A stretch of DNA of 64,000 nt from Candidatus Poribacteria bacterium. Its GTDB lineage: Bacteria > Poribacteria > WGA-4E > JAJDTR01. Shown here piece by piece: positions 9,098 to 60,027 of this stretch. The stretch covers positions 156,113-220,112 of the forward strand of contig JAPPIK010000021.1 of the NCBI GenBank assembly GCA_028820655.1, read 5' to 3'. A program made the position numbers and the translations under genes. The notes under the pieces are model-generated. The model was not told the DNA's origin. It saw only the letters and a list, made by a program, of their open reading frames with translations, and ran no database searches. Position 1 is the stretch's first letter. The number at the start of each line of letters is the position of its first letter.

Positions 9098-12000
9098 ATG
9101 CCTCAGGAATACATTGATATAGGCGGCGCATGTGAACATAATCTTAAGAACATAAATCTTCGGCTTCCGAAGGATAAGCTAATCGTCTTTACCGGTGTCA
9201 GCGGTTCCGGCAAATCCTCACTGGCATTTGACACAATTTACGCCGAAGGTCAGCGCCGCTACATTGAATCCCTCTCCGCGTACGCCCGCCAATTCCTTGG
9301 CCAACTGGAACGACCCGATGTTGATTTCATCGGCGGGCTCTCCCCCTCAATCTCGATTGACCAAAAATCCACGGGTCACAACCCCCGTTCAACCGTAGCG
9401 ACGGTTACGGAGATTTATGACTACCTGCGTGTTCTCTTCGCGCGTGTTGGTACACCGCACTGTCTCGAATGCGGAAGGCCCGTGGGTGCCCAAACCGGGG
9501 ATGCGATTGTGGATCAGATCGTCGGCTTACCCGAACGAACGCGAATTCTCATTTTGGCACCGATTGTGGACGGCCGCCGCGGCGAGTATCGCGAAGATTT
9601 GGCTGACGCGAGAAAAGCCGGATTCGTTCGCGCAAGGATTGATGGGCAGATTTATGACCTCGCTGATGAAATCCAACTCGATCGAAACCAACGGCATGAC
9701 ATTGAGCTTGTCGTCGATAGGCTCATCATCAAATCCGATATCCGCAGTCGTGTCGCGGAAGCCGTGGAGACCGCTTTGCGAATGGGGAACGGTCGGCTTA
9801 TCGTCCACACCGTCTCAACACCCGACTCAGTGGCAGCGGTAGAAAGCGGCGACAAACAGCCGAGTTCCGGTGACCTTCTGTTCAGCAAGGATTACACCTG
9901 CGTCCACTGTAATATCAGCTATGAGCCTCCCGCACCGCGTCACTTTTCGTTCAACAGTCCGGCCGGCATGTGTCCTTCGTGCAAGGGCTTAGGCAACAAA
10001 ACGGAAATGTCACCGGACCTTATCGTACCCGATCCAAGCAAGTCCATTCAAGATGGTGCGATTATCTTTTGGGGAACGCTTGATTCCCTCAATACCCGCC
10101 ATCTCGCTTATAGTGTGGCGGATTATCTCGGATTTGACATTGACACCCCTTGGGAAGATTTGACCGATGAGCAACAACACATCGTCCTTTACGGAACAGG
10201 GAACAAGAAGATCCCGTTCGTTTATCAATCCCGTCGAAATCGCCGTCACAAGTACACGGCACCGTACGAGGGAGTCATTCCACCTGAAGAGCGGAAGTAT
10301 TTCCAGAGCAACTCGGAGTTGCACAAACGATATTTGTCAAAGTACATGGTCTCGGGTCCATGTCCTGAATGCAAAGGGCAGCGGTTGAAGCCTGAGGTCA
10401 AAGCGGTAACGATTGAGGGAAAATCGATTCTCGATGTCATCGCGATGACCATCAGCCGAGGCCTTGAGTTCTTTGAAAACCTACAACTCTCCGAGCGTGA
10501 GGCGTTCATTGCAACCGATTTACTCAAGGAAATCAGGGGGCGTATCGGGTTCTTGATTAACGTTGGTCTGCACTACCTGACGTTAGATCGCACGGCGCCC
10601 ACGCTTTCCGGCGGAGAGTCGCAGCGGATTCGGCTGGCGAGTCAAGTGGGCGCCGGCTTACGCGGCGTCATCTATGTGCTTGACGAACCGAGCATCGGGT
10701 TGCATCCGCGAGACAATGGGCACCTGCTGGCGACACTGCAACTGTTGAGAGATCAGGGCAACACGGTCATTGTTGTAGAACACGACGAGGACACGATGTG
10801 GGCTGGGGACTTGATCGTGGACTTCGGCCCGGGACCGGGGATAAAAGGCGGAGAAATTGCCGCCATTGGCACACCCCAAGAATTGCTTGACAATGCCAAC
10901 ACACTAACGGCGCAGTATCTACGCGGCGAGCAGCGAATCGACATCCCGGTCGAACGCCGGTATGTCGGTGATCGTTGGCTTGAAATCGCCGGTGCGCGTC
11001 ACAACAATCTCAAAAATATCGATGTCAGAATCCCCGTGGGAAGTTTTACTTGCGTTACCGGTGTGAGCGGATCGGGAAAGAGTTCGTTGATTAACGACAT
11101 CCTGTATGAAGCGCTTGCGCGAGAACTGATGAAAGCGCATGCCGATCCCGGGGAGCACAAGGCGATACGAGCGCTCGTGTCCGAAGATGAGGAAATAGAA
11201 AGTCCGGAGCCTACGAGTCTAGACACAGATTTTGAAGAGTTCCCAAGTGAAAGCATCGAACCGTCCATTTCCGAGTCCATGCAATGGGGTGAATCGGACG
11301 TGCAAGTTCCGGTGACTAGTGTTATCGACAAAGTGATCGACATCGATCAAGCACCCATCGGACGAACTCCGAGATCCAATCCCGCCACCTACACCAAGGT
11401 ATTCGATCATATCCGATCGCTATACGCCGAGCTTACAGACTCAAAGTTAAGGGGTTATAAACCGGGCAGGTTCAGTTTTAATGTCCGCGGAGGTCGCTGC
11501 GAAGCGTGCGAAGGAAACGGCGCGCGGCGTGTCGAGATGCACTTCTTGGCGGACGTTTGGGTGAAGTGCAACGTGTGCAATGGTCGGCGGTACAACGAAG
11601 AAACACTGCAAGTAAAGTACCGTGACAAAAGCATTATAGATGCGCTGAACATGGACGTACAAGAAGCGCTCGCACACTTTGCCAATGTACCTCCAATCGC
11701 ACATGTTCTACAGACGTTGCACGATGTAGGATTGGATTATATCAAACTGGGGCAACCCGCTCCGACGCTTTCCGGCGGCGAAGCTCAGCGGATTAAACTT
11801 GCACGCGAACTTGCCAAACGCAGCACGGGAAAAACGCTCTACATTCTCGATGAGCCGACGACAGGGCTGCATTTCGACGATGTCAAAAAGCTATTGGATG
11901 TGCTGCATCGGCTTGTCGAAAAGGGGAACACGGTTGTCGTCGTCGAACATAATCTGGAGGTTGTCAAAACCGCGGATTATGTGATTGACCTTGGTCCCGA

Positions 12001-40346: not shown

Positions 40347-43300
40347 ATGCCGCCTGTGAAAACCCAGATTATTAGGAATACCGTTTTTATGATTAAGAAC
40401 TGCAAGCGTTTCAAGATGTTTCGGGTTCCAACCGCCAAGCAGGCGAGACTTCAGTTCGCTGTGCTACCCCCTACCTACCTTGTTCAACTGAGTTCCCTTC
40501 TATTGCTTTTGATCGCGTCTGCTTCGGCATGGGGTCAATTTTTCGAGTCTCCTCCGCGAGTCATTGATGATGCCCACGAAGACATAGTGTTCAGTCCGAA
40601 TGGGGACGGCATACAAGACAATCTGATAATTGGCTTCGTCACGAATGGCTTCACGGGCGATTATCGAATCATAATCGATGTACACGGACCTATCGCGGTC
40701 GGTCGACCGGACGGAGTGTTCGACATTGATGATGACTGGGTGGTCTTTGGGGCAGTTGGTCCCGGGCCATCGGAGTTCTATCCGGAGAATAATCCGAAAA
40801 TCGTCCATCTGGAATGGGACGGAATGGATCGCTCTCCGAACCAGGTAGCACCGCCCAACGCGCGCCCGGTTAGTCCCGGCAGATATGAGATTCGCGTCGA
40901 GACTGATGCCTTTGAGAATGGCGCGATAGATGTTAATAACCCTACATACCAGTCAACCACGCTAATTGCAGTCGTCGACACCAAAGCTCCGGACATGTCC
41001 GGTAGCTTCTCTAATCATTTCTTCTCGCCGAACAGCGACTCGACCAAAGATGCCACAACGATTACGTATAAACTATCCGAGCATCTTTCCAAACTTAGCT
41101 TGGAATTTGCCGACCTGGAAGGCCAACCCTCGATCGAGTTGAGACAAATGTCAACGGGCAGCCAATCGTTTGATTGGAATGGGCGCGATGGGCTTGGGAC
41201 ACCTCTTACCGACGGCACGTACAACCTCCGCCTTCGCGGGATTGACAATGGAGGCAATGTGACGACGTTCGATGTCGGCTCGGTTCAAATCGATACCGAG
41301 GCGCCTAGCTTCGCGCTGATTACACCCAGCCAGAACGCTTTTCTAAATACATCGGTCGCCGCCGTTGAAGTAGGATTTAACCCGGAAGATCAAGGCAGTC
41401 CGATCGACTTTAACCCGATTGTCACCTCCATAGGTTTACGGGCTGCAGGTGGAATAAGTGTCAGCGGTATAACTCGGAGCGATGTCGCAAATAATCGCCT
41501 TACGTTGATATTGGACAGTCCGCTGGATACCATATCAGAGAACGGCACTTACACCGCCGTAATCCTTGTAACGGATGAAGCCGGGAATCAAGCGGAAACC
41601 GAGACGAGATTTCACTTCGATACGGTACCACCCACTCTAACGCGACTTCGTTCGAATCTCGACGACTTTCGTCCAAGCGGGTCTGTGAACACGAAGATCA
41701 CCTTCGTGGAGGTAGATTTGGATGATAATATTGACGGCGGGTTAAATCTGTCCGCTTCGACGATCGCGCTTAACGGCCCAAATGGAGCGATTTTTGGAAA
41801 TCAGACATTCGGTGGCGAAAGAACTCTGCGCTGGACTCTGAAAACACCCATAGCAACTGACGGTTCGGAAGATGGCATTTACACTATCACGATAAATGCG
41901 GCTGACCGCGCCGGCAATACATCGGATTTCGGCGAGATATCGTTTGTCTACGACACTATAGCTCCCAGGTTGGTTTCGCTTACTCCAAACCTTGAGGACA
42001 GCTCACTTCATTTGGGTGGAGGTGCAATCTTCCGCAGCCAACCGTTATTGCGAATCGATGCAGGCTTCGATGATGGCGACGGGAGCGGGGTTGACCTCGC
42101 CTCAACCCGCCTAGAAATCTTTCGACCGGACGATTCGGGAGTTGGCAACGTCCGCCTTGCGGGGACACGCCATTTGAATACCACCGATGGCACATTGGCT
42201 TTTCTGTTATCCCAACCTCTTGAAAACCAGGACGGAACGCAAGATGGTGTGTACACTGTTCGCGTCACCTCGGCAGATGTAGCCGGAAATTCCGCTGCTC
42301 GTCAAGTTGACCTCGTTTATGACACCGAGACACCAACAATCGTGTCAGTTGCTCCGGCACAAGACGCGACGGTCACGACACTATCCGAAGTGACCTTGGT
42401 CATGAATGATCGCACGAGCGGGGTGGATTTCGGGAACACGCAATTCAAGTTGGTTCGCGATGACGTTGAAATCAGCGCGAATTCGAGTAACAACGGAATA
42501 GATACGGCTATTTTGACGTTGTCTAATCCGCTGAGGGCGGATGGTTCGGATGATGGAGAATACAGAATTGAAATCACAACTGTCGACCGGGCGGGCAACG
42601 CAAGTGACCAAATTGCGCGCCGATTATTCTTTGTATCCCGTCGCCCCGAGATTCGATTGATCGCGCCCGCCGGAAAAGAGGTTAATGAACTAGCCACAGT
42701 TGAAGTACAGCTCTTTGATTATATCGGCACCGGCATTGACTATTCGGCAGATAAATCCTCCGTGATTGTGATACGACCTGACGGCATGGTGCTGCCGGCA
42801 GCTTCCGTTGAAGCGGATACGGCCAACCGTCGGCTTATTTGGATGGCAGAGAATCCACTTCCGCGCGACGGTTCCGCAGATGGCGAATACGCAGTCAACG
42901 TCAACTTTGAAGACAATGTTGGACAGAACTTTACGCAAGAATTTGCGTTGACATTCGACACACAGGTTCCAAGAGTTGCTCAAACTACGCCGACTGCCGG
43001 CGCGCGCATTGCCGAGCTAGGAACGATAGTAATTAACTTCGCCGGCGATCTCAGTGGCGTCGATTTTTCGGCTGTGCAGGTGAGGTTGCTCGATCCAAAT
43101 GGAGAGGCTGTAAGAACAAGCCGCTCTGACAATGGTGTAGACGCTATCACACTGCGCGTACAAGAGCTCCAAGGTTCCGCTGTTGGGGGTGTTTATACTA
43201 TCGAAGTTACCTCCGCCGACCGCGCCGGAAATGTGGCAGACAGCCCTTTTCTATCGGGTTTCACGTACGCTCCCCACAAACCTTCTATTTTGCTTCAGCC

Positions 43301-46300
43301 GCCCACGAACCTACCAACCAACCAGCTTAATCAGATTACAGCTACTCTCCAAGATTATGTTGGTCCCGGAATAGATTTTGACGCGACGGAAACGTCTATA
43401 TCCGTCAGAAATACCAACGGAGTAGTGATCGCTTCCCACCCGATTCAATACGATGAGACGGAATTGCAGATGACATGGACGGCGCTGTCACCCTTGCCCC
43501 GGGACGGTTCGGCTGACGGGGAGTACGAGGTGGCATCCCGGTTCGCCGAGAATTTCGGGTTAGGAACAACCTCTCCCGCCAGTTTCGAGCAGGTTTCCAC
43601 ATTGGTTGTTGACACCCAACCTGCTAAGATTGTGAGCACAATCCCTATGCAGAATGCTCGAATAGCGCAATTGAATCTCGCCACTATTACGTTGGAAGAC
43701 AATTTGAGCGGAGTGGATTTTGATCGCACTCTGGCACGGTTGTTGAATTCCGCCAACAATCCAATACCGACCAATACCAGCAACGATGGAGTAAAACAGA
43801 TATCACTTTCTTTTGACCCGTTTCAAACAGACGGTTCAGCCGACGGGGTGTATCGCCTCGAAATTACACCCGTGGACTTGGCGGGCAATGTTGGTGGTGT
43901 TTCAATCGTTGAGTTTGTCTATGCTACTCAAGTGCCTGAAATAGAGATGTTGACGCCAACCGACGGCTCCGTGATTAACCGGGTTACAGAGATTCGCGTC
44001 CTTATTCGCGACAATTCGGGAGAGGGTATTGACCTTGAGAAGTCCGTGATTCGCTTGTCGGATGCAAGCGGTGCTGATGTCCCCGGGGTTCTCGGAAATG
44101 ATGGAGAACAAACAGTTGCACTGAGATTGAGATTGCCAACGGATGGTTCGGCTGACGGCACGTACACGGTGAATCTGAACGTCGTCGACAATCTGGGTGT
44201 CGAAGCTGGCTATACACGGCAGTTCATGTATGATAGCGTACCGCCGGCACTTATCGCCGAATCAAGTCCGCCGCGCGAGAACATCATTGGCGACAATCGG
44301 ATAGTGGAAGAATTTGAGGTGACTGATCCGTCTCCGGTTCCGGGGGCTGAGTCCGGCGTCGATTTTGATGCGACGACAATTCAGTTGCACGATGCGAATG
44401 GAGAACCCGTCGCCGGGGAACAGAGAGATGACGGCGAAAAGCTAATTAAGTTCACCTCTGCGGAGTTAACGGGTGTAGGTGTTTATACCCTGACAGTAGT
44501 GGTTGCCGACCGTGCCGGGAATGTCGGTGTTCCGCAGCGTTTTACCTATTCAGACGAGATTAAACCGCCGCCTCGCGTCACATCAATTTCGCCGCTCGCT
44601 AAATCAAGAGTGAATCACTTAACAGAGATTTCAGTTGTGCTTGAGGATCGGTCGGGTACGGGGATCGATTTCTCTGCTGCCGGTTCGACCATCGAATTGC
44701 GTAGTCCCGACGGAGTGGTAGTCGGAGGGGTTGTTTCCAACAATGGCGCGGATACCATGACTTTGAACTTGATGGATTCGCTTTTGACTGACGGCAGCGA
44801 TGACGGTGTTTACACGGTTAGCGTTCAACCGGTTGACCTGCTTGGAGTTAGCGGGGCAATCCGTCAATTCACGATAACTTATGACACGCAAAGCCCCCGC
44901 GTACAATCCGTTTCGCATATAGATATGACCGCGAATGTTTCTAACATCAGTGATTCAATAAGGCGCATCGAAACGGAACTCATCGACAATGTGTCGGGGA
45001 TAGATTATGAAAATTCATCCGTTCAGTTGTGGCGTCATTCGGAGAATGAGCTCGTTCTTGTCCCGGGCACTCCCGATAATGATGGATCGCTTGTGTGGTG
45101 GCAACTGGAGGCTCCGCTCGGACGAGATGGGACAGATGATGGAGTTTATACTGTTACGGTAGAGGCGGCTGACGATGCCGGTAACGTAGAAGAGAGGGCA
45201 TTCAGATTTCTTTATGACACGCAAGTCCCGGTCGTCAGGTCTATTCATGCCTCCGCCGTTGCCGGAGATTCACTAGAGCTTGATATGAGTGGCAACCCAT
45301 CGGTTGTTGAGGTTCCCATCCATCAGATTCACTTGGTATTTTCCGATGGTTCGGGCAGCGGGATAGATGTCACACACATGACAGTTCAAATCTTCAATCC
45401 CAATGACGTGGTAGTCGGCGCAACACGGCAAGTCGTCGGTCTGGATGAGATAACGCTCGTTTTTGATTCATTCAAGACAGATGGCTCAGCTGACGGGGTG
45501 TATCGCCTCGAAATTACACCCGTGGACTTGGCGGGCAATGTTGGTGGTGTTTCAATCGTTGAGTTTGTCTATGCTACTCAAGTGCCTGAAATAGAGATGT
45601 TGACGCCAACCGACGGCTCCGTGATTAACCGGGTTACAGAGATTCGCGTCCTTATTCGCGACAATTCGGGAGAGGGTATTGACCTTGAGAAGTCCGTGAT
45701 TCGCTTGTCGGATGCAAGCGGTGCTGATGTCCCCGGGGTTCTCGGAAATGATGGAGAACAAACAGTTGCACTGAGATTGAGATTGCCAACGGATGGTTCG
45801 GCTGACGGCACGTACACGGTGAATCTGAACGTCGTCGACAATCTGGGTGTCGAAGCTGGCTATACACGGCAGTTCATGTATGATAGCGTACCGCCGGCAC
45901 TTATCGCCGAATCAAGTCCGCCGCGCGAGAACATCATTGGCGACAATCGGATAGTGGAAGAATTTGAGGTGACTGATCCGTCTCCGGTTCCGGGGGCTGA
46001 GTCCGGCGTCGATTTTGATGCGACGACAATTCAGTTGCACGATGCGAATGGAGAACCCGTCGCCGGGGAACAGAGAGATGACGGCGAAAAGCTAATTAAG
46101 TTCACCTCTGCGGAGTTAACGGGTGTAGGTGTTTATACCCTGACAGTAGTGGTTGCCGACCGTGCCGGGAATGTCGGTGTTCCGCAGCGTTTTACCTATT
46201 CAGACGAGATTAAACCGCCGCCTCGCGTCACATCAATTTCGCCGCTCGCTAAATCAAGAGTGAATCACTTAACAGAGATTTCAGTTGTGCTTGAGGATCG

Positions 46301-49300
46301 GTCGGGTACGGGGATCGATTTCTCTGCTGCCGGTTCGACCATCGAATTGCGTAGTCCCGACGGAGTGGTAGTCGGAGGGGTTGTTTCCAACAATGGCGCG
46401 GATACCATGACTTTGAACTTGATGGATTCGCTTTTGACTGACGGCAGCGATGACGGTGTTTACACGGTTAGCGTTCAACCGGTTGACCTGCTTGGAGTTA
46501 GCGGGGCAATCCGTCAATTCACGATAACTTATGACACGCAAAGCCCCCGCGTACAATCCGTTTCGCATATAGATATGACCGCGAATGTTTCTAACATCAG
46601 TGATTCAATAAGGCGCATCGAAACGGAACTCATCGACAATGTGTCGGGCATTGACTTTGAACATTCATTCGTTCAGTTGTGGCGTCATTCGGAGAATGAG
46701 CTCGTTCTTGTCCCGGGCAGCCTAGATGATGACGGAACGCTCATGTGGTGGCAACTGGAGGCTCCGCTCGGACGAGATGGGACAGATGATGGAATGTACA
46801 CTGTTGAGGTAGAGGCGGCTGACAATGCCGGCAATGTAGAACAAAAGGAATTTAGGTTTCTCTATGGTACACAAGCTCCCGTCATCAGGTCCGTGTCGCC
46901 ACAAATGAAGTCGAGATTAAATCGTTTGACAGAGATCACTGCCGTGGTTGAAGATCGATCAGGGACCGGAATAGATTATTCGCCGACCGGTTCAACTATT
47001 GAACTCCGTGGTCCCGATGATGTGGCAGTTGAAGGGATTATCGCCGATGATGGCGCCGACACAATGACATTGAATTTGCTTGCCCCGCTTCTTATTGACG
47101 GTAGCGATGATGGCGTTTACACGATTACCGTTCAGCCGGTTGACCACCGTGGGGTCAGCGGGGAAGTCCGGCAATTCACGATAACTTATGATACGCAGAG
47201 TCCACGTATTCAATCGGTTTCACATATAGATATGGCGGCAAATGTATCCCTCGTCAAGGATTCGGTGCGTCGAGTTGAAGCGGAGTTCAGTGAGACGGGA
47301 TCGGGGATAGATTATGAAAATTCATCCGTTCAGTTGTGGCGTCATGCGGAGAGTGAGCGAGTTCTTGTGCCCGGTACTCTTGGTGATGACGGAACGCTGT
47401 TGTGGTGGCAGTTGGATAATCCTCTCGTACGGAGTGGGGAAGACGATGGCGTATATACGATACAGATAACTGCGGTTGACCATGCCGGGAATGCGGAAGA
47501 GACAGAATTCTCGTTTCTATATGATACGCAAAGGCCCATGATTAGTTTCGTTCAAGCTTCCGCCGTTGCCGGAGATACCTTAGAGCTTGATGCGAGTGGC
47601 AGCCGATCCATTGTTGAGCTACCCATTAATCAGATTCTTCTCGCCTTTTCCGATGGTGCGGGAAGCGGTATAGATGTCTCTCAGACAACAGTTCTGCTGA
47701 TTTATTCCGACGAAATAGAGGTTGCTGCGACGCGGCATTCGGATGGGATTGAAACCATTTCTTTGAGATTCAGTCCTCTACGGGATGATGGCATGGACGA
47801 TGGCCGATATATAATACGTGTGACACCGGTAGATTTGGCGGGCAACGCTTTTTCCAGTCCGATAGAATTGCCGTTTCTTTATATAACGCGGAAACCCGAG
47901 ATAGTTTCCACTTCACCTGCTGAACACACATCTATCAATACGCTAAATTCGGTTAGTGCGACACTCTTAGACCACACCGGCGAAGGAATTGATTTCGACC
48001 GCTCTACCGTTGTTTTAAATAATTCCGAAGGAAACTCGATTGATGGTCACCAACGTGTGGACATGGAAGGTTCCGTGATCACTTGGGAGTTAGACCAGCC
48101 ACTATCGCGGGATGGTGTTGACGACGGCGAATATTCCATTCGAATCGTAGCAATCGATGGGGTGGGCAGCGAACTTGAATCAACTAGGAAATTCCTCTAC
48201 GATTCCCGGATACCGCGAATTGTCTCGGTTTCGGCAAACACGAACCCACCGACATCCATTCCCGCCAATGAACTCGTCGTACTTAATCGTTCAATTTCAC
48301 AGATGACGGTGGGACTTTCTGATGAAAATACCGACAGCGAACAGATTCCTACCTCGGGCGTCAATTTTTTGGGTACCACGGTTCGACTAATTGGACCTGA
48401 TAATGTAGACAGCGGCATCACTCTATCTGATGATGGCGAAGCAAAGCTGATTGTGCGCTTTACGCCGCTTGTCCAACCGGGCGTTTACAGGCTTGAAATC
48501 TCGCCGCGTGATCATGCGGGTAACGCTTCGGGGCACGCCATTCAGTACAACTTCCGTCTGGATTTCGCCAAGCCGCGCGTGGATTCCATGCTAATCGGGG
48601 AACACACGGCTCCCGTTGCTTATGTGAATCAACTTCAGCGGATTGCCGCCACGCTTGTTGATTCGAATGAGGTTGGACTAGACTTAACTTCCGGTGGATC
48701 AACTCTGCAAGTGTTGGGGCCGCACGGCGTAGTTGACGGCCTTCAGGAAGGAAGGGGTAACGATGAGCTAGTGTGGACGCCCCTGCACATTCCGGAGGAT
48801 GGTACGGCTGACGGGCGCTACACGGTGACCGTTACGCCTGTGGATAACCTTGGCCTCATTGGCGCACCTGTGCGTTATGAGTTCGTATTAGACACTCAAA
48901 ATCCCGAGCTAGTCGGCGTTAGTCCGATCGACCTTACCCGGGCAGTATCTTATATCGGCGCACAAATCATCCAAATCTCTGCACAAGTGGCGGATGTGGG
49001 ACCTGCCGGTTTAGACATCTTGGCACAGACCGTCCATCTGCAAAATGCCGATGGATCATCCGTTCCGGCGGATCTGACGTCTGACGGCGATAGCCAACTT
49101 TTCCTGACATTGGCTCAACCGTTAGCTACGAACGGCAGCAATGATGGTGAATACTCGGTTGTCATCAGCCTAGGAGATCGAGCCGGAAACACGCTTGAGA
49201 TACAGCATACCTTTGTTTATGATACGCAAGCGCCAACGCTCGTGAATACCGATCCTGCAGGAGATTTGATTCGCGATGACCTTACCGCAATCACCGCCGA

Positions 49301-51266: not shown

Positions 51267-51359
51267 CCGAGTCACCAAATAGGGGGGCATCCGGACTGAG
51301 GCAGGAGAAGGGTTCTGTAAGCATTTGCATCGAATAACGCATGGTAAAAGGAGATTCAA

Positions 51360-52313
51360 GTGGGACGCATCGTCTTGACCGTTACCCTATGTTTACTAAG
51401 CACGATTAGTTGGGGCGCCAATATTCATGATGAAGCCGGGACTACGGGTGCGGCCTTTCTCAAGATTGACGGGGGTAGCCGTCCGGCAGGAATGGGCGGC
51501 GCATTCGTTGGACTTGCGAATGACATAAACACCATATTCTCGAATCCTGCTGGTTTAACCGTTGTGCATGCACACGAACTCACGGCTATGCAGAATTTCG
51601 AATTTGCGGATATTAGTAACCAATCGATTGGCTATGCGCAACGAGAGGGCGACCTTGTTTGGGGTGCGAGTTTCTTGGGCGCTTTTACCGAGATTGAACG
51701 TCGTATACGCCCTAGCGAAAATCCGGATAGCACGGTCAACGTTGGAGGATTTGCAGCAGGTTTGTCACTCGCATATCCCATATCCCCTAGTATTTCGGTC
51801 GGGACTACAGTGAAGGCAATTTCACAGCAACTCGACCTCCAGAATTCGTTTGGGGGAGCAATCGATTTGGGCGCTGTTTGGCGTACATTGGATGATCGAT
51901 TGGGATTTGGAATTGCCGCTCAGAATCTGGGAGTGCTTGACGAAGGCGAGGCTCTGCCGCGAAACGTGCGCGGAGGAATCGCATACCGTATTCATACGCC
52001 TTCGTCCCAAGAAAATGATACACCGTCCAAAAACCTTTTCGCTGTCGTCGCTGATGTTGATGTTCCGATGATTGGTGCCTATCCCACATTCCGCATCGGG
52101 GCTGAGAATTGGTTTCATGAATTGATTGCCGCTCGAATCGGCTACCGCGTCAGCAAGGGCGAGAATCCGAAGAACGGTGTCACCGTTGGAATTGGGATTC
52201 GCCGCAAGGGCGAGGATACGCTGAAAGGTGTCCAATTTCAATTTGATTACGCATTGGTCCCCGATGCCAATGTCGGCAACGCCCATCGACTTGCATTTAT
52301 CACGCGGTTTTAG
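51360..52313 (+). CDS. PorV/PorQ-family outer membrane protein
   Basis: A predicted beta-barrel outer-membrane protein of 317 residues of the FadL-like UPF0164/PorV-PorQ group. A signal peptide (VLTVTLCLLSTISWGA) occupies residues 4-20. The family start of the mature protein is clear: AAFLKIDGGSRPAGMGGAFVGLANDINTIFSNPAGL. Alternating hydrophobic strands follow, and it ends in a terminal Phe (FITRF), as required for barrel assembly. In type IX secretion PorV is the outer-membrane shuttle for cargo with C-terminal signals. It starts at GTG 51360 after AAAGGAGATTCAA, 93 bp after the giant Ig-repeat gene, so the pair probably works together; this is inference. Confidence 0.85.
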   Translation: MGRIVLTVTLCLLSTISWGANIHDEAGTTGAAFLKIDGGSRPAGMGGAFVGLANDINTIFSNPAGLTVVHAHELTAMQNFEFADISNQSIGYAQREGDLVWGASFLGAFTEIERRIRPSENPDSTVNVGGFAAGLSLAYPISPSISVGTTVKAISQQLDLQNSFGGAIDLGAVWRTLDDRLGFGIAAQNLGVLDEGEALPRNVRGGIAYRIHTPSSQENDTPSKNLFAVVADVDVPMIGAYPTFRIGAENWFHELIAARIGYRVSKGENPKNGVTVGIGIRRKGEDTLKGVQFQFDYALVPDANVGNAHRLAFITRF

Positions 52314-52932
52314 GCACTGTCCGTTTCCACCATCATCATTTCTTCTCGAAGCCCTTTCCTGCTTGGCAATTAATCCTCCCGATTCAGACTGCGATTCAAA
52401 TTTCATAAGACGTTACATTTTTGATACTTTTAGTGCAGGTCATGCCACATACTTTCTCTCCAAATTCTTTACAACCCAACCCTCATCGGTCGATTCAACA
52501 TGGTTAGAAAATTGCAATAGAAGGAGTATCCTACGCTTAGGCGATCATGGCTTGACAATTTAGGCACTTTAACCAAGGTTTGCACCTGTGTCAATTTGCT
52601 TGTCCAAATTACCACCCTTGGGTGCTGGAATAAGAGACTGGATTGGTAACGACAAAGTGTGCGATAGGCGAGTGCGGCAAAGGTCCCAACCGTACGTGAT
52701 TATTGGGACTTGATGCATTCTTGCAAAACGCGAGCGGAAACGCGTTAAACTGCGCTCAAATGGGAATGTATAAATTCAATTGACTATCGACCCGATTGCA
52801 GCGAATTTGGAGAATCCGTGACTGGAATGTGCCAAGTGAATTACAGCAGTTTTAATTCAATTGATCTCTCGATTCGCTAAGCAACGTTACGTGCCCCGAC
52901 TTTCGAGCGGCACGGAATTAGGAGGAACAACA
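52314..52932. other. Intergenic region without recognisable features
   Basis: About 620 bp. AT-rich; a TTGACA occurs near 52552 without a well-placed -10 box. No convincing coding frame. Confidence 0.4.
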
Positions 52933-53607
52933 ATGCGAACAAGGATGATTCACGGCAGTATAGTATTGCTAATGGCCGGACTCTTGACAGGGTGCGCCGC
53001 GAGAGTTATAGATGACTCCCAACTACAGTATCTCGCACCGGAATTTACGGTTGAGTCGCTCTCCGATCACGGTTTGAGCCTACTCCCCGTGGTTGCGGGA
53101 CAAGGGCAAGAGGGGCTTCGCAGACCATTAGCGGCAAAACTTGAGGCGCATCTCTCATCTCACTTGCCGGAAGGAAGATTCTTGGGGGCGATCGAGACAC
53201 TTGATTTACTCAACGAAGCAAACTTAACAGAAGCTTATGCACAGATGATTGATGACTATTCGCGAGCCGCGATTCTCAACAAAAAGACGCTGCATCGAAT
53301 AGGCCAAGCGACTGGAATTCGATATCTCTTGCATGTTAAACTCTTGGATCAATCACGTACGGAACGAATTCAGCAGGCCTTTCTGTCTGACAATCTCGTA
53401 AGCTTGGAGGGCAAGAACGTCAGTATATTTGGGCAGGTTTGGGATTGTGGTTTAGGCGACGTTGTTTGGGAAGGCACCGGCCAAGTGAATGCCGAAGCCG
53501 AAGTGGAATTCCAATATGTGAAGCAAGACATCGATCAACTCGTGACCATGGCGGCACAGTCCTTCCTGAACAACCTTCCGGGTATTAAACTTCCACCAAC
53601 CAATTAA
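52933..53607 (+). CDS. Lipoprotein, unknown (possible CsgG/LpoB-like fold)
   Basis: A 224-residue lipoprotein: signal peptide with lipobox LTGC at residues 18-21, so the mature protein starts at Cys21 and is probably at the outer-membrane inner face. The middle part (GIRYLLHVKLLDQSR...VSIFGQVWDCGLGDVVWEGTGQ) follows the strand pattern of CsgG/LpoB/DUF799-type lipoproteins, but I cannot assign it firmly. GGAGGAACAACA precedes ATG 52933; the frame upstream to 52861 is not supported. It is followed 39 bp later by a second lipoprotein gene, and both may belong to the surface-protein locus. Confidence 0.7.
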   Translation: MRTRMIHGSIVLLMAGLLTGCAARVIDDSQLQYLAPEFTVESLSDHGLSLLPVVAGQGQEGLRRPLAAKLEAHLSSHLPEGRFLGAIETLDLLNEANLTEAYAQMIDDYSRAAILNKKTLHRIGQATGIRYLLHVKLLDQSRTERIQQAFLSDNLVSLEGKNVSIFGQVWDCGLGDVVWEGTGQVNAEAEVEFQYVKQDIDQLVTMAAQSFLNNLPGIKLPPTN

Positions 53608-53646
53608 TCATGAATTGATGCTAATACCTAAAGGAGGCGGAAACGC

Positions 53647-54321
53647 ATGAGAATCACAAACCCCACCAATTGGTGCTTTAATTCGGCTTGGACGGTAAGC
53701 GTGGGAATCTCTTTAACCGTGGTATGTTTTCTAATCTTCGGCTGTGGAGGCTCGCCCCGGAACGATCCGTATCGTATCGCCGAACTTAAACCATCGGGTA
53801 CCGGCAAATCTACGGTTCCCCGAAAATCCGTTGAGCAACCATCATCATTGCCGGCAAGCGCCGAGATCAACCGAGGTCAGTTGCGCCCTCTGGTTGAAAC
53901 CTTCGAATCACAGCAACCGCAGAATCTCAATGCGCTTAACGCTACATCCGTTGGTAGAGCATACAGTTTGACGATAGTTTCCAACTGCGATTTGAATGTT
54001 TTGAAGGGATTCATTGCAAGACGATGGGCACCGATTGTGTCTTTACGAACTAGCGGCCGCCCGCGACTTTGGGCTGTGGTTGGCTACGGTCAAGCAGGCG
54101 ACGTTACTCTGGAAAACCCGGTAGACAATCGAAGGAAAACCTTGTCGGAAAAGGAATTTACGACTCAGTGGGAATCGACATCAGATAGCAGATGTGCCCT
54201 AATCACACCAGGCAGGCTAGACCAAGCGAAAGTACAGATGGAGTTAACCCGCTATCTACCTCAATCCAAAGTGTCCCAAGTTAGAGTCACTCGGTCGTTA
54301 CAGGGGAGGGCTCGTGACTGA
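53647..54321 (+). CDS. Lipoprotein with degenerate C39-peptidase-like domain
   Basis: A 224-residue lipoprotein with signal peptide and lipobox LIFGC (cysteine about residue 33). A serine/proline-rich linker follows. The C-terminal part (residues about 115-205) resembles the papain-like C39 fold, with WAVVGYG, VTLENPVDNRRKTLSEKEFTTQW and CALITP, but the usual catalytic Cys is replaced: the strand before it reads CDLNVLKGFIARRWAPIVSL. A peptide-binding rather than proteolytic function is possible. AAAGGAGGCGGAAACGC precedes ATG 53647. Confidence 0.65.
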   Translation: MRITNPTNWCFNSAWTVSVGISLTVVCFLIFGCGGSPRNDPYRIAELKPSGTGKSTVPRKSVEQPSSLPASAEINRGQLRPLVETFESQQPQNLNALNATSVGRAYSLTIVSNCDLNVLKGFIARRWAPIVSLRTSGRPRLWAVVGYGQAGDVTLENPVDNRRKTLSEKEFTTQWESTSDSRCALITPGRLDQAKVQMELTRYLPQSKVSQVRVTRSLQGRARD

Positions 54322-54434
54322 CCACGGTGGTTCTTAACGACAATCCGAACTCGATTTGGTGTGAAATCAAGCATGATTCAAACCGCAAAGATTATATCCG
54401 GGACCTGGTGTCTGATAGCAAGGAGGTTATGTAA

Positions 54435-55193
54435 ATGACGAGAAAGACCGTCCTAGGCACCTTTTATGTGCTAATGATAATTCTCTGTTCTGCTCGGAGC
54501 CAAGCCCTGGCGGATGAAGAGGAACTCTCAGAGATTCTCGTCGGAGGGGACCTGCGTTACGTAGAGGTAGGCGGCGATTATCTGTGGTTTGCAACCGGCA
54601 ATGGTGTCAGTCGATTTGATACTGAATCGAAATCATGGGATGCCTTCACTATCAAAGATGGGCTTATCAGTAACGAGGTCAACTGTATTGCCATTGAGTG
54701 GAAGGAAGGGGTTTTTCGAAAGAGTCCCACTCAGCGTGTCTGGTTTGGCACGGACTCCGGTCTGTCGGTATACGATATGAAGAGTAATGAATGGCAGAGC
54801 TATACAATCAAGGATGGTTTGATTGCGAATAAAATCAAGTGTATATCTGCACGTCGTGATTGGATTTGGGTGGGTACGGAACACGGCGCCAGCGCCTATC
54901 AACGAAAGAAGGATCGATGGCAGTCCTATTCAACGTTTTCCGGTATCGCGTCTCCTTCCGTAACTGCCATCTATCACGATTCGGCTTATGTTTGGATCGG
55001 CACGAACAGCGGCTTGGCGAGATACAATTATAAGCATAAACAGTGGGAACCTTCACTCTTCAAAGTAGTTCGTGGATCGGCACTAGGGGTGGTAATCGTG
55101 GTGTGCCTCGCTCCCCGTTGCCAAGCGAGCAGATTTATGATATCGAGGGTAGTGGAGATATCGTGTATGTTGCCACCGGCAACGGACTGTTGA
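54435..55193 (+). CDS. Reg_prop beta-propeller protein, N-terminal fragment (frameshifted)
   Basis: A signal peptide (VLGTFYVLMIILCSARSQALA) at residues 6-26 precedes at least four two-component-regulator propeller repeats: WFATGNGVSRFD, WFGTDSGLSVYD, WVGTEHGASAYQ and WIGTNSGLARYN. After about 55080 the reading continues as non-repeat residues to a stop at 55193, while the repeat pattern goes on in another frame. The real protein is evidently continuous with the next feature, interrupted by a frameshift near 55040-55090. CAAGGAGG lies before ATG 54435. Confidence 0.8.
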   Translation: MTRKTVLGTFYVLMIILCSARSQALADEEELSEILVGGDLRYVEVGGDYLWFATGNGVSRFDTESKSWDAFTIKDGLISNEVNCIAIEWKEGVFRKSPTQRVWFGTDSGLSVYDMKSNEWQSYTIKDGLIANKIKCISARRDWIWVGTEHGASAYQRKKDRWQSYSTFSGIASPSVTAIYHDSAYVWIGTNSGLARYNYKHKQWEPSLFKVVRGSALGVVIVVCLAPRCQASRFMISRVVEISCMLPPATDC

Positions 55194-58100
55194 GCGTGAC
55201 GAATAAAAAATTCCGGAGTGGCGTAGATTTGGCACGGGCCGACAAGGCGTATTCCAAATTGAAAGGCCCTCAAAGATATAATGCAGATTTGCAAACGAGA
55301 AGCCGCCGATTGTCGCGAAGTGCCAACGAGGCAAGGCTGCGTGCAGCCAATGCAGCATTTAACAGAGCACAGAGATCGTTTTCCCGAAACGAGATGGAAG
55401 CCTGGGCAGCCCTTGGGTGGCAGATCTACCAGCCATCAGAGGTTGTCCAAGACAAAGAAAAACGGGAACAGATATCCGATCGGATCCTTGCCCTCCAGGT
55501 CTCGGCGGGTCAAGTGTGGATGGCTACCAACACGGGACTCTTGAAGTTCGACATGAAAATGCAGAATTGGGATTGGCATCACCGGGAGATGGGCCTGGTG
55601 TCGGATCGAATCAGTTCGCTGGGTATCGCGGGGAACACGATTTGGATTGCCACGGATCATGGGTTATCAAGATTTGGCACCCTCTCTGGAAAATGGACGA
55701 GCTATGTGGCAGAGCAAACGCTGCCGTCTGCGGACGTGTTGGCGGTAGGAGAAGATACAAACGGCGTTTGGCTTGCAACACCCCAAGCAATTAGCTTGTT
55801 CAATCCGAGCACGGAACGTTGGAAAACCTACACGAACGAGGAAGGCTTGGGCGGCGAAAGGGTCGTGTGTCTTGACGTCGTCGGCAATTATGTCTGGATT
55901 GGCACCGACCGAGGTATTTCACGGTTTGACAAATCCGATGAGACGTGGACGTACTTCCAGGCATCCAAGAGTGGGTTGGTAGCCGACGAAATCACTACAA
56001 CCTTGGTCGATGGCAAACATATTTGGATCGGCACCCACCTTGGACTCAACAGATATGACAACACAACGGGAGAGTGGTCTGTTTTTTCGACACGCTTGGG
56101 ATTAGCCGGCGATCGGATTTCGGATCTTGCCGCAGATCCGAACTATGTGTGGGTTGGCACGGAAAATGGCCTGTCTCGTTACAGCAAATCAGATGGTAGT
56201 TGGATCACAATTTCCGAATTGGGAGATGATCGGGTTCTTGCAATTTCACAAGATGACGGAAAACTTGCAGTCGCAACGGAGCGCGGAATCCATATACATG
56301 ACCAGAGCATGGGTTGGCGAATTCTTCAAATCCCTCTGCCGCATTCAAGTGATACCCTCGTTCTTGATGGTGGGTTACTTTGGCTAGGTGGTTGGCGGCT
56401 CCTGGAGCGCTACGACATTGATGCGGGTCAGACCCGAAAGTTTACCGAAGAAGACGCGCAAGGACTCTCTCGCGTGCGAGTGAACGACATCAAAAACTCG
56501 CTTCGTCATGTCTGGGTCGCAACAGATGGAGGCATATATAGGTATAACAAGACTGATAATTCATGGTGGAGTTACGCACCAAGTCGCGGGCGCGGCAGCA
56601 CGGAAGTGCTTGCTGATCGAAACATCCTGGCGATTGCTGTAAGCGAGGAATTCCTCTTCTTGGGCACCCCTAGAGGGATTAGCAGGTACGACAAAATAAC
56701 CGATTCATGGCTGAACTATACTCCGAACGATGGCTTAATCCATCGTTACGTTTCCAGCTTGGCTTGGGACGGAGAATCCCTATGGGCAGGGACACGCGGC
56801 GGATTGAGCAAACACAGCGTGGTCACCGACCGATGGACTGAGTTCACACGAGCGCAAGGGCTGTGCGACAATCGCATCAATGCGATCGCCGTACGCGACA
56901 ATGTGCTGTGGATCGCGACGCAGGGTGGTGTGTCACGCTATGACACGCGAGCGGGAACCTGGCAGACGTTTTCCACCGAAGATGGACTTCCACACAACGT
57001 CGCTTGGACGGTAGCGATTGATGATGAGCATGTGTGGATTGGAACACACCACGGCGCGGCAAGATACGACCGCTCGGAAAAAACGTGGCAGGCTTACACG
57101 ACGGTCGACGGTTTAATTAACAGTGTTGTCACTTCTATCAGCATTGACGGCAAGTACATCTTCCTCACAGGCCCTGCCGGGGTGACGATTTACGACACAG
57201 AGATTAGTTCATTTTCCCCTTACTCATGTAGAGACGGGTTAATTGCAAGCGAAGCCAAAAGTATAGGATCGAAGGAGAAGTACCACTGGATTGGCACTAC
57301 CGACGGTCTCACGCTGTACAACCAGATTACAGATCTTTCGCGGGACTTTACGGTGGGAGAGGGGCTGCCTTCCGACAACATACAGGTCGTTGCTGTCGAC
57401 GATGATGAGATTTGGTTCGGTACGGACGCCGGGCTTGCGCGTCATAATTGGCGAAGTGGTGTCTGGACAGTTTACTCTGAGGCGCCTACCGAGGTTGCTT
57501 CAACCTCATTGGAGCTGATGAGTAACAACGTGAAATCGGTAATCACTGATGGCGACGATCTGTGGATTGGAACCCGAGTGGGATTGGCTCGTTATGACAA
57601 GATCTCGCACACTTGGCATGTCGCTGATTTGAGGAATGGTCCGCTCGGAATCACGGAAATCGATCAGACGGTCGAGGCTGTTGAGGAGGCGCTGCAAGCA
57701 ACGTCGCCGACAACCGAACAGAAGGTTCACGTTGAATACAATCCTGTAATGGCGGAAGAAAAAGCCGTCCAGATCCTCCATAGTCTAATTATGAACAGGA
57801 CTCCCATGCCGAACGATCCGACGATTCCCTCCCCATTTTTGGATCTCATGATTGCCCTTCCATCGAATCCTGTGGTTCGCGTCATTGAGCCTATTTTTGG
57901 TAGGCTCTGGATCGGTACGGAGGCTGGCGTAATGATCTATGACAAGGCGGAAGAGCAGGTAATCCACACGCTTCCCCTACTTCCACGCGTGCGAGAGATC
58001 AAATATCATCGAGGCAGGACTTGGGTGCTGTGCGATGAAATGATTGCGATTCGTGACCTAAAAGTTGATTCGTGGGTGCTTGTGTTGGGAAGTCAAGTGG

Positions 58101-58699
58101 TGGAGCACACGGGTGCTCAGACCTCCGTGTGCTACACCGAAAAGATTGAAACCGCGCCTGAAGATTTCGGGATTGTCGATTGTACGGCAATGACGTTCAT
58201 GGATAATCAAGTCTGGATCGGGCGTGAAAAGGGGTTAAAGATTCTTGAAGTGGAATTTCCACAATTCGAGCCAGTACCCGAAATCGACATCCCGGATTAC
58301 CTTCGGGAGGCAGAAATTACCGCGCTTGATTTCGATGGGCGCGACACGTGGATCGGTACCAGAAACGGACTATTTCAATATCGTTCAGAATCGAAGAAGT
58401 GGAAGGCTCACACTATTCTTGACGGTCTCGCCGGCAATGAAATTAGTACCGTAACCTCAGGCGATAAACATGTCTGGGTCGGTACGGCGGGAGAGGGACT
58501 TAGCCGGTATGACAAATCAGCACGGGAATGGGCTAGATTTAGGCTCGAGGACGGTTTGGCGGACAACAATATCCGCGATATCACAGTTGACGGGAAATAC
58601 ATCTGGATCGGCACGTTCTCGGCGGGAGTTTGCCGTTACGACCTGACGACTGAACTCTGGACGACCTATCGGACAGCAGATCAGTTCGCGCAAAGATAA
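55043..58699 (+). CDS. Reg_prop beta-propeller protein, main part (frameshifted)
   Basis: Continues the preceding frame: about 23 further propeller repeats of the form W[IV]GTxxGLxRYD...W...T..DGL, beginning WIGTRGG and ending WIGTFSAGVCRYD. With the N-terminal part there are about 27-28 blades, enough for four seven-bladed propellers. Residues about 60-160 form a helical, basic insertion (ADKAYSKLKG... NEARLRAANAAF). No histidine kinase, DNA-binding or Y_Y_Y domain follows, so unlike the classical hybrid sensors this is a stand-alone periplasmic or surface propeller. The annotated start ATG 55043 has no ribosome-binding site and is only the frame boundary. Confidence 0.82.
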   Translation: MGTFTLQSSSWIGTRGGNRGVPRSPLPSEQIYDIEGSGDIVYVATGNGLLSVTNKKFRSGVDLARADKAYSKLKGPQRYNADLQTRSRRLSRSANEARLRAANAAFNRAQRSFSRNEMEAWAALGWQIYQPSEVVQDKEKREQISDRILALQVSAGQVWMATNTGLLKFDMKMQNWDWHHREMGLVSDRISSLGIAGNTIWIATDHGLSRFGTLSGKWTSYVAEQTLPSADVLAVGEDTNGVWLATPQAISLFNPSTERWKTYTNEEGLGGERVVCLDVVGNYVWIGTDRGISRFDKSDETWTYFQASKSGLVADEITTTLVDGKHIWIGTHLGLNRYDNTTGEWSVFSTRLGLAGDRISDLAADPNYVWVGTENGLSRYSKSDGSWITISELGDDRVLAISQDDGKLAVATERGIHIHDQSMGWRILQIPLPHSSDTLVLDGGLLWLGGWRLLERYDIDAGQTRKFTEEDAQGLSRVRVNDIKNSLRHVWVATDGGIYRYNKTDNSWWSYAPSRGRGSTEVLADRNILAIAVSEEFLFLGTPRGISRYDKITDSWLNYTPNDGLIHRYVSSLAWDGESLWAGTRGGLSKHSVVTDRWTEFTRAQGLCDNRINAIAVRDNVLWIATQGGVSRYDTRAGTWQTFSTEDGLPHNVAWTVAIDDEHVWIGTHHGAARYDRSEKTWQAYTTVDGLINSVVTSISIDGKYIFLTGPAGVTIYDTEISSFSPYSCRDGLIASEAKSIGSKEKYHWIGTTDGLTLYNQITDLSRDFTVGEGLPSDNIQVVAVDDDEIWFGTDAGLARHNWRSGVWTVYSEAPTEVASTSLELMSNNVKSVITDGDDLWIGTRVGLARYDKISHTWHVADLRNGPLGITEIDQTVEAVEEALQATSPTTEQKVHVEYNPVMAEEKAVQILHSLIMNRTPMPNDPTIPSPFLDLMIALPSNPVVRVIEPIFGRLWIGTEAGVMIYDKAEEQVIHTLPLLPRVREIKYHRGRTWVLCDEMIAIRDLKVDSWVLVLGSQVVEHTGAQTSVCYTEKIETAPEDFGIVDCTAMTFMDNQVWIGREKGLKILEVEFPQFEPVPEIDIPDYLREAEITALDFDGRDTWIGTRNGLFQYRSESKKWKAHTILDGLAGNEISTVTSGDKHVWVGTAGEGLSRYDKSAREWARFRLEDGLADNNIRDITVDGKYIWIGTFSAGVCRYDLTTELWTTYRTADQFAQR

Positions 58700-58791
58700 A
58701 TCAGCCTTGCGTATCCGCGTGCTGTCCGAGCCGAAGCCGGCGCGTAAAAAACGCGTCTAAGGCGCAAGAATGCAAGTACCTACCGGAGACG

Positions 58792-60027
58792 ATGAATCGT
58801 GTGGGTACAACCCGTCCACGGGCGGTACAGCGAAAACTCGCATTAACTAAAATTGTAAATCATTCTCCTCACACACAACCTGGCTATATGCAGCGTCTAC
58901 AAAGCCATCGAATCACACTCGCCTCATGGCTACTATCGCTGTTGCTCAACGTCCTGATTCTGTATCTCTTCACACTGTTTCCGCAACGCCAGCCGGAAAC
59001 TCTAGATGATGCGCTGGAGGTGGAAACGGTCATCGTGCCGACCGAGCGGACCGCGAATGCTCGCGTTACTCCACTTTCACGATCAAACCGCCCCAGCCAG
59101 CTCGTCAAATTGACGCCGCTAAAGCAGCGCTCGACGCCAACGCCGACGTTACCTCTCGTTACACACGCTCGTCCTGCCGAAGAAGTGTCACAACAACCTA
59201 TGCTAACGTCGCCGGACGAGGCGATGCCGATTGAAAGCGGTCCGATTGCCACTGCTTTGCACGCCCGATTCTCTCCATCCATGCCAGGTGCAACGGTAGG
59301 TTCCGACGTAGAATATGGACGACAAAGAGGGCTTTCTGTTGGAGCGCCGGCTCGAAAAGTGAGCCGGCTGGATAAATTGCGCGGGGAAGTAGGGGCTTCA
59401 CCGCAGGCTGAAGTGCGTGGCTCCGGAAGGGAAATAAGCGGTTATTACCACATTGCGATCGTGCAACATGAGGACGCCGCCGAGACGGTTCGGACCAAAG
59501 TGTTGGAACGATTAGCGGATGCGGTGAACCGCTGGACAAATGTGCACACCAAACTCCTTCCCGGCGACACTCCGCTGGCTGATCCGGCGATTTTACGTAT
59601 TCCACTGGTGTACATTACTGCGACGAGCGCATTCGCCTTTTCCGAACAGGAGCGTGCAAATCTGAACACATACCTTCAAAACGGCGGGACACTTCTGTTT
59701 TCCGATCTATCAGAGAATTGGGGACGCGACGGTGCGGTCGCAAATTCCATCCGGTTTGAACTTTGGAAAATCTTGGGCGAGAGCGCAGAATCACATCCAC
59801 TGGCTCCGGAGGAGCCGGTCTGCAATAGTTTCTTTGAATTCAAGAAGGGGGCACCCCTTGTTGATAAGAGTCGAGGAGGATTCTTTACGTTGCAACTGGA
59901 TGAACGAATTGCCGTATTCTATGATGCGGCAGGATTGGGTTTAAAGTGGCTAGAAAATGACTCCGACGAAAAGTGGTTGCGGTGGGGAGTAAACCTGATT
60001 GTGTATACTCTTACGAATTGGAGATAG
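58792..60027 (+). CDS. Membrane-anchored DUF4159 protein
   Basis: A 411-residue protein with one N-terminal transmembrane helix (LASWLLSLLLNVLILYLFTLF, residues about 43-63), a Ser/Thr/Pro-rich periplasmic linker (about 70-200), and a C-terminal DUF4159 domain of Rossmann-like fold (about 212-411), with segments YHIAIVQHEDAAETVR, LQNGGTLLFSDLSENWG and DAAGLGLKWLEN. The helix-plus-linker part recalls TonB-type architecture, but no TonB domain is present. ATG 58792 has GGAG upstream; ATG 58888 is an alternative. DUF4159 proteins often occur in gliding or secretion-related operons of uncharacterised function. Placed beside the propeller gene, it may take part in the same envelope system. Confidence 0.75.
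   Translation: MNRVGTTRPRAVQRKLALTKIVNHSPHTQPGYMQRLQSHRITLASWLLSLLLNVLILYLFTLFPQRQPETLDDALEVETVIVPTERTANARVTPLSRSNRPSQLVKLTPLKQRSTPTPTLPLVTHARPAEEVSQQPMLTSPDEAMPIESGPIATALHARFSPSMPGATVGSDVEYGRQRGLSVGAPARKVSRLDKLRGEVGASPQAEVRGSGREISGYYHIAIVQHEDAAETVRTKVLERLADAVNRWTNVHTKLLPGDTPLADPAILRIPLVYITATSAFAFSEQERANLNTYLQNGGTLLFSDLSENWGRDGAVANSIRFELWKILGESAESHPLAPEEPVCNSFFEFKKGAPLVDKSRGGFFTLQLDERIAVFYDAAGLGLKWLENDSDEKWLRWGVNLIVYTLTNWR

What the first reader, a model, noticed from the sequence alone, without database searches (positions are those of the whole stretch)
40347..60027. Candidate surface-protein/export locus: giant Ig-repeat protein, PorV-like barrel, lipoproteins, propeller and DUF4159 protein
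Six co-directional genes encode exported products of a coherent type: a 3,639-residue Ig-like protein ending in a FlgD-like domain, a PorV/PorQ-family barrel next to it, two lipoproteins, a propeller of about 27 blades, and a TonB-like-anchored DUF4159 protein. In type IX secretion, PorV handles cargo with C-terminal Ig-like signals, so a related export or adhesion system is plausible. No core T9SS genes (porK, L, M, N, sprA) are in the window.
Basis: inference. Interest (0 to 1): 0.6.

Follow-up and report, generated by a model that had tools for sequence, protein, structure and literature searches.

The report
Giant surface protein with dedicated barrel
Two neighbouring genes, kept together across a whole bacterial phylum, encode a huge repeat-built surface protein and a membrane barrel that probably holds it there, in a genome that also carries the outer-membrane half of a type IX secretion system previously reported as missing from what is probably this phylum.

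Summary
The genes are real, but they are two units, not one locus. The core is the giant Ig-repeat protein plus the PorV/PorQ-family barrel 93 bp downstream. The giant's C-terminal domain (CTD) is in 81 of 85 genomes of the phylum. The barrel gene adjoins it in 29 of 30 loci of the order and in at least six loci outside it. The lipoproteins, propeller and DUF4159 gene are at this place only in the same genus. The propeller is frameshifted here.

GldL and GldM models find nothing, but that negative has no positive control.

The giant's last domain matches PorU's uncleaved domain, not the standard sorting tail. Seven of 15 PorV-family genes directly adjoin a CTD gene, and all seven CTDs are divergent (18-53 bits, against 151-180 for 40 canonical ones).

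Best reading: a type IX cargo kept on the surface by its own PorV-family barrel, like PorU-PorV, PorZ-PorQ and SprB-SprF. Binding is inferred. The organism is probably a Poribacterium (inferred); a 2014 study found sorting tails there but no secretion genes.

The parts
40347..51266 (+). Giant Ig-repeat surface protein, 3,639 aa, with N-terminal hydrophobic signal-like segment; proposed T9SS cargo
   Evidence: Open frame; Big_13 and other Ig-like families; orthologues across the order and phylum
41046..41234 (+). N-terminal FlgD_ig-like domain of the giant (aa 234-296)
   Evidence: PF13860 best stretch
43831..46880 (+). Near-identical in-frame duplication inside the giant (two copies of about 1.4 kb, offset 1,650 bp; about 1.08 kb at 100% identity)
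50919..51263 (+). C-terminal domain of the giant (last 115 aa), PorU-type T9SS CTD
   Evidence: NF033707 963-1094; PDB 6za2 PorU CTD E 2e-7 with orthologue-only profile; Foldseek top hits 6za2
51360..52313 (+). PorV/PorQ-family outer-membrane barrel, proposed private shuttle and anchor of the giant
   Evidence: NF033709 115 bits over cut-off 90; PDB 6h3i PorV E 6e-10; adjacent to the giant in 29 of 30 order loci
52933..53607 (+). Putative lipoprotein 1 (lipobox LTGC); not part of the conserved pair
   Evidence: Sequence; orthologue here only in the same genus
53647..54321 (+). Putative lipoprotein 2 (lipobox FGC); not part of the conserved pair
   Evidence: Sequence; orthologue here only in the same genus
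54435..58699 (+). Reg_prop/PorZ-like propeller gene, split into ORFs 54435-55193 and 55043-58699 by a one-base deletion near 55051; no C-terminal sorting domain
58792..60027 (+). DUF4159 protein with N-terminal hydrophobic anchor; companion of the propeller
   Evidence: PF13709 E 5e-24; beside the propeller at another place in G004

Best explanation
The giant is a type IX secretion cargo: exported by Sec, moved across the outer membrane through the genome's SprA-like translocon by means of its C-terminal domain, and then kept on the cell surface because that domain, of the uncleaved PorU/PorZ type, stays bound to the PorV/PorQ-family barrel encoded just downstream. The barrel is thus a private shuttle and anchor, as PorV is for PorU, PorQ for PorZ and SprF for SprB. 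Shown by computation: the homologies, the genome-wide T9SS parts, the conserved gene pair and the divergence of barrel-adjacent CTDs. Inferred: surface location, CTD-barrel binding, lack of cleavage, and an adhesive or coat-like role for the repeats.
For: Giant CTD orthologue in 81 of 85 genomes, 21 of 22 genera of the phylum; barrel orthologue in 58 of 59; adjacency in 29 of 30 order loci and at least six loci from other orders or another class. CTD matches PorU CTD by profile, NCBIfam and fold; barrel matches PorV of the SprA complex. SprA-like in own genome and all 20 searched, PorU over cut-off followed by a PorV-family gene, 78 type A CTD matches. Seven of 15 PorV-family genes adjoin a CTD gene, P about 3e-7, all with divergent CTDs. 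PorU and PorZ keep their CTD and are anchored by PorV and PorQ; SprB needs SprF encoded just downstream.
Against: No binding or location data. The SprA-like protein is below the curated cut-off. GldL and GldM models find nothing, so the energy source is unexplained. In G004 giant and barrel are on different contigs, apparently unlinked. The barrel could not be modelled. The canonical CTD set was chosen by a shared motif, which inflates the score gap.
Confidence: 0.72

Rival explanations
1. The giant is an ordinary T9SS cargo handled by the genome's general PorV and cleaved by PorU; the neighbouring barrel is merely co-transcribed and has another job.
For: In Bacteroidota all type A CTDs studied use one PorV. 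The CTD fold is of the type A kind. A strongly matching general PorV candidate exists at C4:164794 (223 bits).
Against: The giant's CTD scores 33 bits on the canonical model against 151-180 for canonical CTDs and is not in the TIGR04183 list. Adjacency with its own barrel is kept across the phylum.
Confidence: 0.13
2. The giant is itself a part of the secretion or attachment machinery, as PorU and PorZ are, or a structural surface coat that the system builds on, rather than an adhesin-like passenger.
For: Single copy and nearly universal in the phylum; PorU-type CTD; pairing with a PorV/PorQ-family barrel as for PorU-PorV and PorZ-PorQ.
Against: No enzymatic or PorZ-like domain was found in it, only Ig-like repeats; length and repeat number vary between species, more typical of adhesins or coats.
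Confidence: 0.1
3. All six genes act as one surface complex, with the propeller, lipoproteins and DUF4159 protein as partners of the giant and barrel.
For: Same strand, and the same order of genes in both members of the genus; most have signal-like N-termini.
Against: In the other relatives examined the barrel is followed by unrelated genes. The same-genus relative has about 6 kb of other genes between barrel and lipoproteins. Propeller + DUF4159 sit together elsewhere in G004. The propeller has no CTD and is frameshifted here.
Confidence: 0.05

Closest known systems
PorU-PorV and PorZ-PorQ subcomplexes of Porphyromonas gingivalis (PMC5562754, PMC11285876)
   Same: A secreted protein that keeps its CTD, held at the surface by a PorV/PorQ-family barrel; the giant's CTD is closest to PorU's and its barrel is of the PorV/PorQ family (PorQ 64 bits, PorV 30 bits).
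   Different: The giant has no peptidase or PorZ-type propeller domain and is built of Ig-like repeats; its barrel is below the PorQ and PorV equivalog cut-offs.
SprB-SprF and other type B cargo/shuttle pairs of Flavobacterium johnsoniae (PMC9143113, PMC12618676)
   Same: Giant repetitive surface protein followed directly by the gene of a FadL-like barrel; one private barrel per cargo.
   Different: SprF is of the PorP/SprF family and SprB has a type B CTD; here the barrel is PorV/PorQ family and the CTD is PorU-like. No PorP/SprF match in this genome (controls silent).
Poribacterial proteins with Por-type sorting domains (Kamke et al. 2014, PMC3909097)
   Same: Many WD40 proteins ending in TIGR04183-type domains; all three WD40 candidates tested here fit.
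   Different: That study found no structural genes of the system; this genome has SprA-like, PorU and PorV-family genes. That it is a Poribacterium is my inference, not a tool result.

Membership tests
PorV/PorQ family barrel | NF033709 subfamily score over curated cut-off (90 bits) | tested here: met
   115 bits; homologous to PorV of 6h3i, E 6e-10
PorQ or PorV proper (equivalogs) | NF033711 (220 bits) or NF033710 (250 bits) cut-off | tested here: not met
   64 and 30 bits
Type A T9SS cargo (TIGR04183) | C-terminal match to TIGR04183 | tested here: not met
   Giant not matched; matched instead by PorU CTD model positions 963-1094
PorU/PorZ-type uncleaved CTD | Sequence and fold similarity to the PorU CTD | tested here: met
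   fold model of modest confidence
PorU/PorZ-type uncleaved CTD | Physical CTD-barrel binding, CTD retained | not testable with these tools
   Needs biochemistry or a complex prediction
Type B cargo with PorP/SprF shuttle | Barrel of the PorP/SprF family (TIGR03519) | tested here: inconclusive
   Window barrel not matched by TIGR03519 and none in the genome, but no control genome rang
Type B cargo with PorP/SprF shuttle | CHU_C / type B CTD | tested here: inconclusive
   PF13585 whole-protein score 27.4 against 27, while PorU-type matches are far stronger
Type IX secretion system in this genome | SprA/Sov translocon | tested here: inconclusive
   TIGR04189 E 4.5e-44 in three stretches, 150 bits, but below the 200-bit cut-off; conserved in 20 of 20 genomes
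Type IX secretion system in this genome | PorU sortase | tested here: met
   NF033707 423 bits over cut-off 420; C25 peptidase and propeptide domains
Type IX secretion system in this genome | PorL/M (GldL/M) motor | tested here: inconclusive
   GldM none, GldL E 0.04 only; no positive control available
Type IX secretion system in this genome | PorK/PorN ring | not tested

The most novel reading that the evidence does not exclude
A phylum outside Bacteroidota, probably Poribacteria, has a type IX system with no recognisable GldL/GldM motor, in which the PorV/PorQ family has radiated into private shuttle-anchor barrels, each matched to one non-canonical, uncleaved CTD: the role PorP/SprF plays in Bacteroidota, filled by a different barrel family. 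The giant would be the phylum's conserved main surface protein.
Probability: 0.35. Interest if true: 0.75.

Novelty: new variant of a known kind. Interest (0 to 1): 0.58.

Why it matters
Kamke et al. (2014) left open how poribacterial proteins with Por-type sorting domains leave the cell, because no secretion genes were found. A SprA-like translocon, PorU, a PorV-family expansion and a phylum-wide cargo/barrel pair make that question directly testable, if the genome is a Poribacterium. The lock-and-key pattern (divergent CTD beside its own barrel) also gives a rule for finding dedicated surface-anchor pairs in other uncultured phyla, and a natural set for working out what distinguishes cleaved from uncleaved CTDs, which PMC11285876 could not determine.

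Tried and rejected
Six-gene complex: rejected as a conserved unit by gene order. AlphaFold2 of the barrel as a single sequence failed (pLDDT 31) and was not used. Alignments of relatives were not handed to the predictor because its stated rule lists only other kinds of loci. The first CTD profile (A2) contained the genome's own PorU sequences and could have been circular, so it was redone with orthologues only. phmmer of the SprA-like protein against the PDB found nothing. The one genome-contig scan returned only a 28% Eisenbacteria match, so no tool named the organism. PorP/SprF search: nothing, but controls silent too. Paper searches for Poribacteria with T9SS were read only as hit lists, and none of the hits is a genome study of Poribacteria other than Kamke et al..

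Full report
What is there. The giant is a single uninterrupted 3,639-codon frame with Ig-like families throughout and FlgD-type domains near both ends. The next gene, 93 bp downstream, is a PorV/PorQ-family barrel above the curated cut-off. Two small proteins with lipobox-like N-termini, a Reg_prop/PorZ-like propeller and a DUF4159 protein follow. The propeller is not intact: compared with the uninterrupted 1,437-aa gene of the same-genus relative, one base is missing near 55051, giving two overlapping ORFs. Whether this is a sequencing error or a real frameshift cannot be told here.

Two units, not one. Twenty relatives were laid out around the barrel. The giant lies upstream of it in all but one (G004), while the lipoproteins and propeller are found there only in the same-genus genome, with about 6 kb of other genes (including a TonB-dependent receptor) between them and the barrel. 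The DUF4159 gene sits beside the propeller at an unrelated place in G004, and close orthologues occur in only three of the 19 relatives searched. Propeller + DUF4159 are thus a separate cassette.

The pair is phylum-wide. A clear barrel orthologue (48-81% identity, against at most 37% for the next paralogue) is in 58 of 59 genomes, the window's own included. Checking the gene just upstream in 30 loci, the window itself among them, 28 show the giant directly and one through an apparent frameshift; in G004 giant and barrel lie on different contigs. The giant's last 250 residues match in 81 of 85 genomes and 21 of 22 genera of the phylum, and in six loci from other orders or another class a barrel of 36-46% identity follows directly.

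The genome has a type IX outer-membrane system. Searches of the whole genome found one 2,154-aa SprA-like protein (TIGR04189 E 4.5e-44, 150 bits, below the 200-bit cut-off), conserved in all 20 genomes of the order searched; two PorU-like C25 proteins, one at 423 bits over the 420 cut-off and followed by a PorV-family gene; 18 PorV-family matches in about 15 genes, eight above cut-off; and 78 matches to the type A sorting domain. Of four CTD proteins scanned, three are WD40-repeat proteins; the fourth is not. GldM gave nothing and GldL only a chance-level match. No control genome rang above cut-off for either, so the motor may be missing, too divergent for these models, or replaced.

Which CTD the giant has. 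It is not in the TIGR04183 list. A profile of giant orthologues alone matches one relevant solved structure, the CTD of P. gingivalis PorU (6za2, E 2e-7), and a single-sequence AlphaFold2 model of modest confidence (pLDDT 66) has the same protein as its top two Foldseek hits. The barrel orthologue profile has one match, PorV from the SprA complex (6h3i, E 6e-10). In P. gingivalis the CTDs of PorU, PorZ and PorA are not removed (PMC11285876), and PorU and PorZ are held on the surface by PorV and PorQ (PMC5562754).

Lock-and-key pattern. Of 15 PorV-family genes, seven directly adjoin a gene whose product ends in a CTD; with about 85 CTD genes among roughly 5,000, about 0.5 would be expected (P about 3e-7, a rough calculation with an assumed gene number). 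Some of these seven were recognised as CTD genes only after inspecting the neighbours, so the true contrast is somewhat weaker. Scored against a model built from 40 canonical CTDs of this genome, those canonical ones give 151-180 bits and the seven barrel-adjacent ones 18-53. The divergent CTDs are also unlike one another (17-23 bits on the giant's own model). The canonical set was picked by a shared motif, so the size of the gap is inflated to some degree. One canonical CTD gene lies one gene away from the highest-scoring PorV-family gene, which may be the general shuttle.

Mechanism. The most economical reading is that the giant is a T9SS cargo retained by its private PorV-family barrel. The logic equals SprB-SprF, where the barrel gene lies directly downstream and is needed for secretion and anchoring (PMC9143113, PMC12618676), but the barrel family differs. 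Homologies, gene order and CTD divergence are shown by computation; binding, lack of cleavage, surface location and function of the repeats are inferred.

Organism. No tool named it. The presence of WD40 + sorting-domain proteins matches what Kamke et al. (PMC3909097) reported for Poribacteria, who also found no structural genes of the system; I judge Poribacteria likely from this and from general knowledge. If right, the present finding bears directly on their open question.

Scores. New variant of a known kind; interest 0.58. The parts are known families; the phylum-wide pairing, the barrel-family swap and the presence of the outer-membrane machinery are what a specialist would notice.

Noticed in passing
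window 43831-46880: In-frame near-identical duplication inside the giant gene (offset 1,650 bp, about 1.08 kb at 100% identity), either very recent or an assembly artefact.
   Followed up: partly
window 9098-14785: 1,895-aa UvrA-like ORF with two UvrA interaction domains, apparently a fused double-length UvrA.
   Followed up: no
window 55051: One-base deletion splitting the propeller gene; intact in the same-genus genome and in G004.
   Followed up: partly
L161 and L164 (G000:C4:8800-22000, G000:C26:4000-21900): Tandem arrays of five or more neighbouring genes ending in canonical T9SS sorting domains; the ones scanned are WD40-repeat proteins.
   Followed up: partly
L154 (G000:C22:38430-43955): 1,841-aa protein with a PorZ-like propeller match and a FlgD-type CTD, next to a 697-aa protein with a PorV-family match: a possible PorZ-PorQ-like pair.
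   Followed up: partly
L100:4603-10857 (G000:C5): A second PorU-like C25 protein without a PorV-family gene beside it, 380 bits, just under the cut-off.
   Followed up: no
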